This document shows positions 19,736 to 27,766 of a stretch of 64,000 nucleotides of DNA, in pieces (the first letter of the stretch is position 1; each line of letters opens with the position of its first letter). The notes under the pieces were generated by a model, which saw nothing but the letters and a program-made list of their open reading frames with translations, had not been told where the DNA came from and searched no databases. The position numbers were made by a program, and so were the translations under genes. Source of the DNA: Chthoniobacteraceae bacterium (GTDB taxonomy: Bacteria; Verrucomicrobiota; Verrucomicrobiia; Chthoniobacterales; Chthoniobacteraceae); the NCBI GenBank assembly GCA_947471505.1, contig CANIWM010000014.1, forward strand, positions 1 to 64,000, in the 5' to 3' direction.

Positions 19736-19773
19736 GGCGCGAGCGCCGTGAGACTCGCGGAGGCGGGCTTTTC

Positions 19774-21558
19774 TCAGCGAGGGAGGAGACGATAAAGCGG
19801 ATGTTTTCCGAACTCTTTGTGAAGCTTCGTGATGCCGACGTATTCAAAGCGGAACTCGTCGAGGCCTTCGTTGGCGGCGAGGGCGGCGAAGGGCTCGGAG
19901 ACGCATATTTGGTTTTCGTGAGTGATGGGCTCGATGCGGGCGGCGAACGCGATGTTGGTGCCTGCGAGGTTGGGGCGATTGGTGATGGGGTCGGTGAACG
20001 GGGTGACGGGGCCGGCGTGAAGGCCGATGCGGAGGGAGACGCCTTCGGGGAGGTCGAGGACCTCGCTGGTGCGGAGCGCGGCGGCTCGGAGGTCTGTGGC
20101 AAAGCGGGCGGCGGTGCGGAGGTCTGAGAAGGCTAGGAAGAGGCCGTCGCCCCAAGTATTGGATTCGATGGGGGCGTTGCCGTTGGCGGCGGCGCGGTCG
20201 ATCATACTCTGGACGCCTTGGAGGAAGCGTTTGGTATATTCGACGACGGCTTCTTCGCGGAGCTTGCTGTAGCCTTTGCAGTCGGAAAAGAGGATCGCGC
20301 GGATTGGGCGGCGGTCGGCAGGGTGGGGGACTTCGAGGTGCGCGAGAGAGGGCGGGATGATGCCTTCTTGGCCGGGGTAAATGTTTTCCACGGGGATGCC
20401 GAGTTTTAGCAAATGCGCGACTGACCAGGCGGTGCCGCCGTGACCGTCGCCCGACTCGCCGTTCCAATAGACAAGCGCACGGAGCGGGGCATCGAGCTGG
20501 CGAGCGCGGAGTTTCGCGAGGCCGATTAGATAGCGACCTCCATATTCAAAGGCGGTGCCGTCGGCGGTGGAACTGTGGTTGTTGGCGATGCGGACGGAGT
20601 CGGCGTGAGTGAGTGCTTCTGCGTAACGTGCGCACCAGTTTGACCCATCGTCGGACACGCTCGTGCTCTCGAAAACATCGCGCTCGAGCGGGAGGACGAT
20701 GTGAGTCTTCCCTCCGAGTTTGTGCATGGCATGGAGGAAAATAAGATCGCTACCACGGGCGGCACTTGCAAAGCCGATGGAGGCTCCGGTGCGCTCGATG
20801 TAGGCGAGGATGCGCGTTTCGACATCGGGCACGGCATCCTCAGGAAATCGCGAGGGCGTGCGTTCGGACGCATCGGTGCGGTGGCCGACGAAGACGATGA
20901 CGGGGGCGACCGCGAAGCAGCCGTCGAAGCGGTCGTCTTGGCCGAAGATGTAGCGAGAAAGCTCGCGCGCTTGCCGCCGGGTACTGGCGGTTTGGCCGGG
21001 GGAGGTGGAGAACAATGCAGCCTCTGAGTAGAGGGCGCGTGCTTGGTCTTCCTCGCCGCAGATGAGTGCGGCTTCGGCGAGTGTGGCGACGGACCAGTAG
21101 TCGCGCTTCGGCACGGCTTGCGCGAGCTTTGCAGAGCGAGCTGCCAAATCGTAGGCGATGGCTTTTTCGCCGAGGAGGAGCGAGAGCGTGGCTGCATTGA
21201 TGCCGGGGTAGTAGCCGTTGGGATCGGCCTTGGCTTCGGCGTGCTCCAGCCCGTCGCGGTAGGCGTCGCGTGCGTTGGCGAACCCTTCGTGGCGGTCTTG
21301 GGCGTTGGTGGCATCGCGCCCGATTTCTTTCCATGCCCGTCCGAGTAAGCCGAGGGTCTCGGGGTCTCGATGGCCTTCGTCGTAGAGCTTGGAGAGGGTC
21401 TCGATCGCTTCTTTTGGCGAACCTGTGAGCGCGAGCGCATGGGCCTGGACCTGGCGGCAAACGAGATCGTCGGGATGCTCTGCGAGGTGCTCTGTGGCAA
21501 GGTCGTAGGCGTGGTAGGGGTCTGCGTGCTGGATGCGCTTTAATTCGGAATAGTTCAT
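19774..21558 (-). CDS. Class III nucleotidyl cyclase with TPR-like and SLOG-like domains
   Basis: A 594-residue soluble protein in three parts. Residues ~1-215 are TPR-like helices (A-L-A-L-T-G-S-P-K-E-A-I-E), similar to TRAFs-binding/DUF4071 regions. Residues ~220-400 form a Rossmann-like domain starting V-I-V-F-V-G-H-R-T-D with G-F-A-S-A-A-R-G-S-D and T-H-I-V-L-P, resembling SLOG nucleotide-binding proteins. Residues ~415-594 are an adenylate/guanylate cyclase catalytic domain: metal-binding Asp in L-F-S-D-C-K-G-Y-S, the second in W-G-D-G-L, and the N...A-A-R-I block in T-N-I-A-F-A-A-R-I. The usual substrate-choosing Lys before the G-D motif is not obvious (N-T-W-G-D), so the cyclic nucleotide made cannot be predicted. 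It diverges from ald. Domain limits are approximate. Confidence 0.8.
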   Translation of the reverse strand: MNYSELKRIQHADPYHAYDLATEHLAEHPDDLVCRQVQAHALALTGSPKEAIETLSKLYDEGHRDPETLGLLGRAWKEIGRDATNAQDRHEGFANARDAYRDGLEHAEAKADPNGYYPGINAATLSLLLGEKAIAYDLAARSAKLAQAVPKRDYWSVATLAEAALICGEEDQARALYSEAALFSTSPGQTASTRRQARELSRYIFGQDDRFDGCFAVAPVIVFVGHRTDASERTPSRFPEDAVPDVETRILAYIERTGASIGFASAARGSDLIFLHAMHKLGGKTHIVLPLERDVFESTSVSDDGSNWCARYAEALTHADSVRIANNHSSTADGTAFEYGGRYLIGLAKLRARQLDAPLRALVYWNGESGDGHGGTAWSVAHLLKLGIPVENIYPGQEGIIPPSLAHLEVPHPADRRPIRAILFSDCKGYSKLREEAVVEYTKRFLQGVQSMIDRAAANGNAPIESNTWGDGLFLAFSDLRTAARFATDLRAAALRTSEVLDLPEGVSLRIGLHAGPVTPFTDPITNRPNLAGTNIAFAARIEPITHENQICVSEPFAALAANEGLDEFRFEYVGITKLHKEFGKHPLYRLLPR

Positions 21559-21693
21559 CAGTGGCGTGTGAGGTATGGCGAAGTCATCGTCGGAAATCGC
21601 TTAGACCGCCATCTTCAAAGTGGTGCGTCTTTTCCGCAGCCCGCTGAGGGTCGTCGATTGCGCTGCTGTGGTAGGGCGTGTTATCCTCCCGTC

Positions 21694-25513: not shown

Positions 25514-26368
25514 TCATTGGAAAAGCTCTTGTCCTGATTCCTCCACCGCACCCTTCACCCGTCGGATGCACAACTCGATGTGCGCGGCGTCCGCCTCCAC
25601 GCCGACACATTTGCGCTTCGTCCGCAGCGCGGCGACTGCCGTTGTTCCGCCGCCGAGGAAGGGGTCGAGCACAAGGTCGCCTTCGTTTGTGGAGGCAAGG
25701 ATGCAGCGTTCCACGAGGCGCAAGGGCTTTTGCGTGGGATGTTTCCCGTGCGTCTTTTCGTCCCCGCTCGGGGCGGTCATATTCCAGACGGATTTCATCT
25801 GCTTTCCGCCGTTGGTTTCGCGCATGAGGGCGTAGTTGAAGCAGTGCTTGCTCTTCTCGTTTTTCGCGGCCCAGAGGATCGTCTCGGTCGAGTGGGTGAA
25901 GTAGCGGCAGGAGAGGTTTGGCGGCGGGTTCGGCTTCTCCCAAGTGATGTCGTTCAGCACTTTGAATCCGAGTTGCTGCATGGCGTAGCCGACGGAGAAA
26001 ATGACGTGGTGCGTGCCGCTCACCCAAATCGTACCGTTGGGCTTCAGGACTCGCTGGCAGCGCCGCAACCATTCGAGGTTGAACGTGTGGTTCAGCTCCG
26101 CGCCTCGCGATTTGTCCCAGTCGCCTTTGTCAACCTTCACCATCTTCCCGCCTTGGCAGGTGATGCCGCCGTTCGAGAGGAAGTAAGGCGGGTCGGCGAA
26201 GATACAGTCGAATCGGCCCTCGGGATATTCGTCCGCGATGGCGTCGAGCACTGCGAGGCTGTCGCCGTGGTGGAGCCACACGCCGCGCGCCTCGTCGGAA
26301 AAAACAATCGGGTTCTTCTGCACGGGTGAGCTATGGCGAGGTGCGGCGGGCGGTGGCAAGCTCGACAT
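25514..26368 (-). CDS. Adenine-specific DNA methyltransferase, apparently without a nuclease partner
   Basis: From the ATG at 26368 the product is 284 residues. Catalytic motif IV D-P-P-Y is at 59-62 and SAM-binding motif I is late (D-P-F-L-G-G-G-T-T, from residue 235). The order IV, target-recognition region, I is that of beta-class amino-methyltransferases such as DpnA, HinfI and CcrM types. Other typical blocks are G-D-W-D-K-S and K-H-P-T-Q-K-P-L-R-L. It should methylate adenine N6 at an unknown short site. A longer reading frame up to 26641 runs antisense through the DUF1080 gene and is Gly/Glu-rich without domain character, so I use 26368. No restriction endonuclease is adjacent; an orphan, regulatory or solitary defence role is possible. 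Confidence 0.88.
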   Translation of the reverse strand: MSSLPPPAAPRHSSPVQKNPIVFSDEARGVWLHHGDSLAVLDAIADEYPEGRFDCIFADPPYFLSNGGITCQGGKMVKVDKGDWDKSRGAELNHTFNLEWLRRCQRVLKPNGTIWVSGTHHVIFSVGYAMQQLGFKVLNDITWEKPNPPPNLSCRYFTHSTETILWAAKNEKSKHCFNYALMRETNGGKQMKSVWNMTAPSGDEKTHGKHPTQKPLRLVERCILASTNEGDLVLDPFLGGGTTAVAALRTKRKCVGVEADAAHIELCIRRVKGAVEESGQELFQ

Positions 26369-26410
26369 TCCCTCAAAGAACCCGCCGCCCCGCGCATCCT
26401 CTCCGGAACA

Positions 26411-27766
26411 ATGAACCTGCTCGCCCGAACTCTTCTCCTTTTCACCGCCGCAACCGTCCTCGCCGAAGACATGACGCCCCTCTTCAACGGCAAAGACCTC
26501 ACCGGCTGGGTCCCCGTCAACATCGCCCCCGGCACCTTCAGCGTGAAGGACGGCGTCCTCATCACCACCGGCTCCCCCGTCGGCACCATCCGCACCGAGA
26601 AGATGTATGAAAACTGCATCATCGAACTCGAATGGCGGCACATGACCAGCGGCGGCAACTCCGGCCTCTTCCTATGGGGCGACGGCCTCCCCGCCACCGG
26701 CTCCGCCTACCCCCGCGGCATCGAAGTCCAAATCCTCGACACCGGATACAACGCCGGAGGCAAAAACGAATGGTACTCCGTCCACGGCGACGTCTTCGCC
26801 TGCAACGGCGCAAAAATGACACCCGCCGGCCGCATCTCCCCGAACAAACTCCGCAGCTTCCCCATCGAAGAACGCACCAAACCCTCCCCCGAATGGAACC
26901 ACTACCGCGTCGTCGCCAAGGACGGCGAAATCCGCCTCAGCGTGAACGGCAAGGAAGTCACCGTCGCCACCGGCGCCTCCCCCCGCAAAGGCTACCTCAT
27001 GCTCGAAAGCGAAGGCGCCGAGTGCCAGTTCCGCAACATCCGCATCACCGAACTCCCCTCCACAAACCCCAAGCCCGAAGAAATCGCACTCCCCGCAGAC
27101 GGCTTCGTCCCCATCTTCACCGGCATCAACCTCGACGGCTGGAAACTCCCCGACGGCGACAACGGCCATTGGAAAGCCGCCGGCGAAGTCATCGACTACG
27201 ACGCCTCCAGCGAGGCCAAAGGCGACAAGCACCTCTGGACCGCCCGCCCCTATGCCGACTACACACTCGTCGTCGATTGGCGCCTCAAAGAAACCCCCTA
27301 CACCAACCCCCGCACCCGCAACGTCCTCCCCGACGGCAGCGACGAAAAAGGCCCCGACGGCCAGGTCCTCGGCATCCCCCGCCCCGACTCCGACTCCGGC
27401 ATCATCCTCGGCGGCGACCAGAAGTACCAAGTCAACATCTGGTGCTGGCCCGTCGGCTCCGGCGAAATGTACGGCATCCGCACCGACGGCAAAAACCCGC
27501 CCGAACTCCGCGCCGCCGCCACCCCCAAAGTCAAAGCCGACAAACCCATCGGCGAATGGAACCGCTACGAAATCACCCAGCGCAAAGGCCTCGTCACCGT
27601 CCTCCTCAACGGCAAAACCGTCCTCCCCGGCATCCAAATTCCCGACTTCCCCGCCAACGCCCCCATCGGCCTCCAGCACCACGGCGGCAAAGACAAAAAC
27701 GGAGTCTGGAACAGCCCGCCCGCCCTCGTGCAATTCCGCAATTTGTTTATCCGCGAGCTAAAGTAG
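26411..27766 (+). CDS. Exported protein with two DUF1080 (3-keto-disaccharide hydrolase-like) domains
   Basis: A 451-residue protein with a signal peptide (M-N-L-L-A-R-T-L-L-L-F-T-A-A-T-V-L-A). Two DUF1080 domains follow: one about 20-212 (L-F-N-G-K-D-L-T-G-W near 26) and one about 233-451 (I-F-T-G-I-N-L-D-G-W). DUF1080 proteins have a concanavalin-like beta-sandwich and include 3-keto-disaccharide hydrolases acting on oxidised sugars; which sugar this one uses is unknown. The ATG at 26411 was chosen because the signal peptide starts here. Codons are strongly C-ending, giving a marked C-over-G bias on this strand relative to several neighbours. It diverges from the methyltransferase across 42 nt. 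Confidence 0.88.
   Translation: MNLLARTLLLFTAATVLAEDMTPLFNGKDLTGWVPVNIAPGTFSVKDGVLITTGSPVGTIRTEKMYENCIIELEWRHMTSGGNSGLFLWGDGLPATGSAYPRGIEVQILDTGYNAGGKNEWYSVHGDVFACNGAKMTPAGRISPNKLRSFPIEERTKPSPEWNHYRVVAKDGEIRLSVNGKEVTVATGASPRKGYLMLESEGAECQFRNIRITELPSTNPKPEEIALPADGFVPIFTGINLDGWKLPDGDNGHWKAAGEVIDYDASSEAKGDKHLWTARPYADYTLVVDWRLKETPYTNPRTRNVLPDGSDEKGPDGQVLGIPRPDSDSGIILGGDQKYQVNIWCWPVGSGEMYGIRTDGKNPPELRAAATPKVKADKPIGEWNRYEITQRKGLVTVLLNGKTVLPGIQIPDFPANAPIGLQHHGGKDKNGVWNSPPALVQFRNLFIRELK

What the first reader, a model, noticed from the sequence alone, without database searches (positions are those of the whole stretch)
19774..21558. Cyclase fused to a SLOG-like nucleotide-binding domain
A TPR-like region, a Rossmannoid domain with V-F-V-G-H-R and G-F-A-S-A-A-R-G-S-D blocks, and a class III cyclase lie in one polypeptide. 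SLOG domains bind nucleotide-type ligands and occur in bacterial immune signalling, so a protein that both senses and makes nucleotides is plausible. The usual substrate-choosing Lys near the G-D motif is not evident, so the product may be unusual.
Basis: partly seen in the sequence, partly recalled or inferred. Interest (0 to 1): 0.55.

Follow-up and report, generated by a model that had tools for sequence, protein, structure and literature searches.

The report
TIR-linked SLOG-cyclase signal relay protein
This bacterial protein joins two predicted sensors of nucleotide signals to an enzyme that makes another nucleotide signal, and its relatives often sit next to TIR immune enzymes, so it may be a relay in a bacterial immune pathway; no activity has been tested.

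Summary
One 594-aa ORF, on the minus strand, carries a TPR-S sensor scaffold (PF20308), a middle domain with the two quoted motifs, and a class III cyclase. The middle domain matches no Pfam family or PDB sequence, but its model (pLDDT 92.8) is a SLOG fold nearest YpsA (Z 18.5; next DprA 12.9). The architecture is a family of 94 homologs, in many phyla. Both metal Asp are kept in 86 of 89 aligned. The Lys that selects ATP is Asn here; that alone does not name the product.

The main new result is the neighbour. A TIR gene lies one or two genes away in 33 of 94 loci; 46 of 46 TIRs found keep the column-117 Glu that I take to be catalytic. All 16 same-phylum genomes with this protein have a TIR, against 95 of 371 others. 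The same SLOG type is also fused to SLATT_1 membrane effectors beside TIRs.

Best reading: TIR makes an NAD-derived ligand, TPR-S/SLOG senses it, the cyclase emits a second nucleotide. The direction is inferred. The window's own copy is an orphan between ThuA and alanine dehydrogenase genes, absent from that site in a close relative.

The parts
19774..21558 (-). TPR-S / SLOG / class III cyclase gene, 594 aa
   Evidence: ORF and translation; Pfam; AlphaFold2 full model pLDDT 93.7, pTM 0.92
20944..21558 (-). residues 1-205, TPR-like helical region holding the TPR-S domain (19-126)
   Evidence: PF20308 E 1.2e-16; all-helical in the model; family profile also matches the ASK1 central regulatory region 5ulm, E 1.6e-5, and 8qgy, 6.9e-5
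20344..20940 (-). residues 207-405, SLOG domain, nearest YpsA
   Evidence: model pLDDT 92.8, pTM 0.90; VIA-align Z 18.5 to YpsA 2nx2, 156 aligned, 2.5 A; DprA 12.9, LOG and Moco carrier about 11
20878..20895 (-). VFVGHR, residues 222-227, first-strand loop of the SLOG domain
   Evidence: G225 97% and H226 91% of 89 homologs
20746..20775 (-). GFASAARGSD, residues 262-271, second conserved SLOG block
   Evidence: A267 92%, G269 93%, D271 98% of 89 homologs
19777..20322 (-). residues 413-594, class III nucleotide cyclase domain
   Evidence: PF00211; VIA-align Z about 20-22 to solved class III cyclases including Rv1900c 1ybu Z 21.6
20281..20283 (-). Asp426, first metal-binding Asp
   Evidence: D in 86 of 89 homologs; role by homology to class III cyclases
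20146..20148 (-). Asp471, second metal-binding Asp
   Evidence: D in 86 of 89 homologs
20158..20160 (-). Asn467 at the substrate-selecting (Lys/Glu) position
   Evidence: N 62, E 19, R 4, Q 2, A 2 of 89 homologs
19936..19938 (-). Arg541, transition-state Arg by homology
   Evidence: R in 86 of 89 homologs
19743..21576 (.). segment present here and absent from the same site in close relative G433
   Evidence: flank alignment stops at 19742 (81% identity) and resumes at 21577 (91%), meeting in G433 with a 5-base overlap

Best explanation
A single-chain signal relay. The TPR-S scaffold and the YpsA-like SLOG domain sense an NAD-derived ligand (an ADP-ribose isomer or similar) made by a TIR enzyme; ligand binding switches on the C-terminal class III cyclase, whose 3',5'-cyclic nucleotide is the next signal, read by a cyclic-nucleotide-binding protein. 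Shown by computation: the three domains, intact metal and Arg residues, and linkage of the family to TIR genes whose candidate catalytic Glu is kept. Inferred: the ligand, the direction TIR to SLOG to cyclase, the product, the receiver, and a role against phage. In this genome any TIR partner is unlinked: there is a TIR-LRR and an NNH6-TIR-NACHT protein elsewhere.
For: SLOG fold nearest YpsA; the YpsA-like clade is described as including cADPR sensors (PMC9503650, passages), and SIR2-SLOG ThsA is activated by 3'cADPR made by a TIR (PMC11204291, passages). TIR genes by position: +-1, 25 of 176; +-2, 10 of 160; +-3-5, 10 of 394; +-6 or more, 1 of 385 (Fisher p 6.5e-11 for +-1-2 against the rest); 19 of the 25 at +-1 are on the same strand. 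Within 5 kb: 21 of 41 loci against 0.41 expected from whole-genome TIR_2 counts. Presence changes 23 times on the tree. Glu at one TIR column in 46 of 46. 16 of 16 carrier genomes have TIR_2, 95 of 371 others (p 9e-10). None of the TIR proteins carries a cyclic-nucleotide-binding domain, so they are unlikely to be direct cNMP effectors. The same SLOG type is fused to SLATT_1 in eight proteins, with a TIR beside it in 5 of 8. L090 has TIR, cyclase and cNBD-kinase genes in one run; L081 has TIR, HD, cyclase, cNBD-kinase. Split genes occur as well (TPR-S-SLOG and cyclase).
Against: The window copy has no TIR or other defence gene nearby. 55 of 94 loci show no TIR at all in the DNA held, though some flanks are short. 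A cNBD gene is found in only 7 of 96 loci, so the receiver is mostly unknown. No SLOG ligand pocket was compared residue by residue with ThsA; ThsA was not among the 50 rows listed. The cyclase looks inactive in 3 of 89 homologs (L005, L011, L013). No phage record or viral contig matched, so nothing ties the family to mobile phage genomes. No biochemical datum exists.
Confidence: 0.5

Rival explanations
1. Pycsar-like order: the cyclase is the infection sensor's output and the TIR protein is the effector, switched on by the cyclic nucleotide.
For: PycTIR is a known cyclic-UMP-activated TIR effector (PMC11224242, abstract). Adjacent TIR and cyclase genes. Asn467/Trp469 is neither the Lys nor the Glu of purine cyclases, and the R-T-Q-G-D subclade has the spacing of EaPycC R142, Q144, D146.
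Against: No TIR protein in the set carries a recognised cNBD; many carry TPR, WD40, kinase or NTPase parts instead. The PADLOC PycC model hits P0001 only at E 0.012 and two other family members not at all at 0.001. It leaves two candidate NAD-signal sensors in the cyclase unexplained.
Confidence: 0.2
2. Stand-alone regulatory cyclase: in this organism the protein senses a metabolic nucleotide and feeds ordinary cyclic-nucleotide receptors; the TIR link of relatives is not relevant to it.
For: Housekeeping neighbours here. A mostly Glu-type clade in Pseudomonadota: Glu without Trp has a TIR within 5 kb in 1 of 15, against 30 of 62 for the Asn-Trp type. The own genome has several cNMP_binding proteins, including a Crp-type regulator and MscS-type channels.
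Against: P0001 is of the Asn-Trp type. It is a sporadic gene: among 10 genomes of the genus only this one has the fused form, and a close relative lacks it at that site, which is unlike a core regulator. The own genome has two TIR_2 proteins.
Confidence: 0.2
3. The SLOG domain is an enzyme of the LOG type that cuts a nucleotide, rather than a sensor.
For: LOG proteins are among the structural matches (Z about 11).
Against: The closest match is YpsA, well above LOG. The family's second glycine motif reads GGTAxxV, without the Glu of the LOG motif PGGxGTxxE (sequence; the LOG motif is recalled).
Confidence: 0.07

Closest known systems
Thoeris (ThsB TIR with SIR2-SLOG ThsA)
   Same: TIR gene beside a SLOG-domain protein in 33 of 94 family loci; candidate TIR catalytic Glu kept
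   Different: Output is a cyclase, not SIR2 NADase or a TM-macro protein; TPR-S and often RyR added; TIR partners are mostly large; own copy has no TIR nearby
Pycsar (PycC with PycTIR or PycTM)
   Same: Class III cyclase, TIR nearby, and the purine-selecting Lys/Glu usually replaced
   Different: TIR partners lack a cNBD; PycC model match marginal or none; extra SLOG and TPR-S sensors
SLOG-SLATT_1 proteins
   Same: Homologous SLOG domain (BLAST E about 3e-11 at best), also beside TIR genes in 5 of 8 loci
   Different: Output is a two-helix membrane domain instead of a cyclase
ASK1 central regulatory region / TPR-S proteins
   Same: TPR-S domain; family profile matches ASK1 5ulm at 1.6e-5
   Different: ASK1 output is a protein kinase in animals
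Rv1900c-type class III cyclases
   Same: Fold Z 21.6; Asn in place of Lys (recalled for Rv1900c)
   Different: No SLOG or TPR-S part

Membership tests
SLOG superfamily | Rossmann-like SLOG fold shared with YpsA, DprA, LOG | tested here: met
   YpsA Z 18.5, DprA 12.9, LOG 11.6 or less, TRPM2 N-terminal region about 10; Foldseek DprA E 2e-5
SLOG superfamily | sequence match to a SLOG family model | tested here: inconclusive
   no relevant Pfam hit in 59 members, no PDB sequence hit; sequence link only to the N-terminal part of SLATT_1 proteins
LOG phosphoribohydrolase clade | catalytic PGGxGTxxE motif (recalled) | tested here: not met
   family consensus GGTAxxV
Class III nucleotide cyclase | class III fold | tested here: met
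   Z about 20-22 to many solved class III cyclases
Class III nucleotide cyclase | two metal Asp and transition-state Arg | tested here: met
   D426, D471, R541 in P0001; each in 86 of 89
Class III nucleotide cyclase | transition-state Asn four before the Arg | tested here: not met
   Ala537 in P0001; S 44, N 23 of 89. The active Ma1120 also has Ala (PMC4215837, passages)
Adenylate cyclase (canonical) | Lys and Asp substrate pair | tested here: not met
   Asn467 and Asn530
Guanylate cyclase (canonical) | Glu at the Lys position | tested here: not met
   Asn467; Glu in 19 of 89 relatives
Pycsar | PycC cyclase family | tested here: inconclusive
   PADLOC PycC E 0.012; none for L032 and L094 at 0.001
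Pycsar | adjacent effector with a cyclic-nucleotide-binding domain | tested here: not met
   none at the own locus; no TIR protein with a cNBD; cNBD genes in 7 of 96 loci
Thoeris | TIR gene beside a SLOG-domain protein | tested here: not met
   not met at the own locus; met in 33 of 94 relatives
Thoeris | SIR2 or TM-macro effector domain in ThsA | tested here: not met
   Pfam shows only TPR-type and cyclase domains
Thoeris | 3'cADPR binding by the SLOG domain | not testable with these tools
   needs ligand binding
TPR-S proteins | PF20308 above cut-off | tested here: met
   61.6 bits against 27.6

The most novel reading that the evidence does not exclude
A three-step bacterial immune cascade that couples the two known small-signal logics in one path: a TIR makes an NAD-derived signal, a TPR-S/SLOG-cyclase converts it into a cyclic mononucleotide, and a separate receiver acts. 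The SLOG module would be a swappable receiver for TIR signals, plugged into SIR2, a SLATT membrane domain or a cyclase.
Probability: 0.4. Interest if true: 0.82.

Novelty: new variant of a known kind. Interest (0 to 1): 0.62.

Why it matters
Known TIR systems such as Thoeris end in an effector, and Pycsar starts with a cyclase. A protein that receives one nucleotide signal and makes another would allow amplification and a second threshold, and would link two immune logics. TPR-S is also the module of the animal stress kinase ASK1, so a bacterial TPR-S with a defined ligand would bear on what ASK1's region evolved from. Small operons such as that of L090 make it testable.

Tried and rejected
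Virus link: viral-contig scan found no relative, phage records none. Sequence searches for the middle domain in Pfam and PDB gave nothing useful. ThsA was looked for in the structural list and not seen among 50 rows; that does not exclude it. TIR as a direct cNMP effector: disfavoured, no cNBD. Pyrimidine product: not established. Mobile-element ends around the indel: one search showed only short or weak repeats, none I took for element ends. Base composition of the gene is that of the host (GC 0.631 against 0.616 for the window), so no sign of foreign origin.

Limits of the counts. That background used 42 of the 80 loci, chosen by me; one was not held. Genes were called by a simple longest-ORF rule, so some neighbours are spurious. 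Genome size was not controlled in the 16 of 16 co-occurrence; the 16 are 12 fused, 3 split and one broken cyclase fragment at a contig edge. From 94 homologs, 5 rows were dropped before the alignment of 89: two duplicates, one split, one frameshifted, one truncated. Two duplicate loci were dropped from 96 before the TIR counts; the window's own locus is not among the 94.

Print: searches showed no held paper describing this TIR / SLOG / cyclase arrangement. The two papers most likely to describe TPR-S and SLOG contexts (Burroughs and Aravind 2020; Burroughs et al. 2015) are not held, so earlier mention there is possible; what I say of them is recalled.

Full report
What is there. The finding's span holds one ORF of 594 aa on the minus strand. 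Pfam sees TPR-S (19-126) and a class III cyclase (421-580) with nothing between. The ASK1-family MAP3K_TRAF_bd model scores just under its cut-off. A model of the whole protein from 51 aligned relatives has mean pLDDT 93.7 and pTM 0.92.

The middle domain. Predicted alone from 59 relatives it has pLDDT 92.8. Among chains ranked by Foldseek, the best by VIA-align is YpsA (2nx2), Z 18.5, 156 residues, 2.5 A; DprA follows at 12.9, then LOG and molybdenum-cofactor carrier proteins near 11 and TRPM2 near 10. Sequence alone would not have shown it: 0 PDB hits and no useful Pfam hit. By BLAST the domain is related to the N-terminal part of SLATT_1 proteins.

The cyclase. Fold is ordinary class III, Z about 20-22 to many solved cyclases including Rv1900c. 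Metal Asp426 and Asp471 and Arg541 are kept in 86 of 89 relatives each. Four rows depart from the D-D-R set: L005, L011, L013 and L045 (Arg only). The purine-selecting position is Asn in 62, Glu in 19, Arg in 4, Gln in 2, Ala in 2; Trp two before the second Asp in 68 of 89. Among six other cyclases from the same phylum aligned, one also has Asn; none shows Trp there. So the product cannot be read from these residues. Position 467 changes 10 times on the tree.

The family. A scan of genome contigs found 193 relatives and kept 80; with same-phylum genomes and a Caballeronia plasmid this gives 94 homologs. They lie in many phyla, among them Verrucomicrobiota, Pseudomonadota, Acidobacteriota, Planctomycetota, Cyanobacteriota and Myxococcota. 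In 35 of 387 same-phylum genomes some domain matches; 16 have this protein or part of it. A RyR domain is at the N-terminus in about 19 relatives, one of them a partial match, and encoded as a separate nearby gene in two (L068 and L084; L113 is the same locus as L068) (Pfam checked in L006); it is at the C-terminus in L144 and L149. In some genomes the protein is split into a TPR-S-SLOG gene and a cyclase gene.

The TIR neighbour. Clustering of neighbours brought up TIR proteins, checked by Pfam in three that gave TIR_2 hits. By gene position TIRs occur in 25 of 176 (+-1), 10 of 160 (+-2), 10 of 394 (+-3 to 5) and 1 of 385 (beyond). 33 of 94 loci have one at +-1 or 2, 39 of 94 anywhere in the DNA held. 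Nineteen of the 25 at +-1 are on the same strand, most with gaps under 100 bases. Against whole-genome counts of TIR_2 (224 in 41 genomes), 0.41 loci would be expected within 5 kb and 21 of 41 are seen. The steep fall with distance argues for a partner rather than a defence island. Every one of 46 TIR domains has Glu in one column of the alignment, which I take to be the catalytic Glu (the assignment is recalled). In the phylum, all 16 carrier genomes have TIR_2 against 95 of 371 others (Fisher; size not controlled). DUF4062 genes stand beside L046 and L070, L146 and, just under cut-off, L147.

Swapped outputs. Eight proteins carry a related SLOG domain and a SLATT_1 match, five of them over the Pfam cut-off. 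Five of these eight loci have a TIR beside them: three by profile (L154, L156, L159) and two by coordinates (G060, G348). So one SLOG type next to TIRs carries either a membrane domain or a cyclase. This is the main argument for TIR to SLOG to output.

Possible receivers. L090 and L081 place a cNBD-protein-kinase gene in the same run as the cyclase and a TIR; L081 also has an HD protein and a PP2C. Across 96 loci cNBD genes occur in only 7, so a general receiver is not identified. No TIR protein has a cNBD.

This copy. Neighbours are DUF6263, ThuA, alanine dehydrogenase, a UbiX-type flavoprotein and a histidyl-tRNA synthetase-like protein. No TIR_2 match lies on this contig; the genome has a TIR-LRR and an NNH6-TIR-NACHT protein and one DUF4062 elsewhere. 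In relative G433 of the same genus the ThuA and ald genes adjoin: alignment of the flanks ends at 19742 and resumes at 21577. One gene thus came or went as a unit; direction is unknown. G433 has a split form elsewhere. Only this genome of the 10 in the genus has the fused form.

Literature seen. Pycsar structures, PMC11224242: abstract, section 6, part of section 7. Thoeris, PMC11204291: passages. SLOG clades, PMC9503650: passages. PMC7159879, PMC8195603, PMC4215837, PMC13092281: passages only. None of these passages describes a TIR-SLOG-cyclase chain.

Verdict. The architecture is solid, the family link to TIRs is strong, the order of signalling is inferred, and the role of the orphan copy in this genome is uncertain.

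Noticed in passing
window 25517-26641 (-): A DNA methylase (PF01555, E 4.7e-59) with no restriction gene recognised next to it.
   Followed up: no
L083, L094, L125: A larger cassette around the Arg-type or split cyclase: HD-type proteins, GAF domain, subtilase; sigma factor and zinc-finger-like small protein in L094.
   Followed up: partly
L083, L094 cyclase domains: R-T-Q-G-D has the same spacing as the CTP-selecting R142, Q144 and metal D146 of EaPycC, so this subclade may make cCMP.
   Followed up: partly
L005, L011, L013: Cyclase domains that have lost metal residues, possibly inactive; their genomes do hold TIR_2 proteins.
   Followed up: partly
L128 (own genome C125) and L127 (C4): NNH6-TIR-NACHT and TIR-LRR proteins, possible unlinked partners.
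   Followed up: partly
L031 8556-9947: On the Caballeronia plasmid a predicted lipoprotein gene without Pfam match overlaps the cyclase gene by 4 bases.
   Followed up: no
L120, L119, L118 and genomes G155, G122, G075: Several TIR genes in a row near the cyclase.
   Followed up: no
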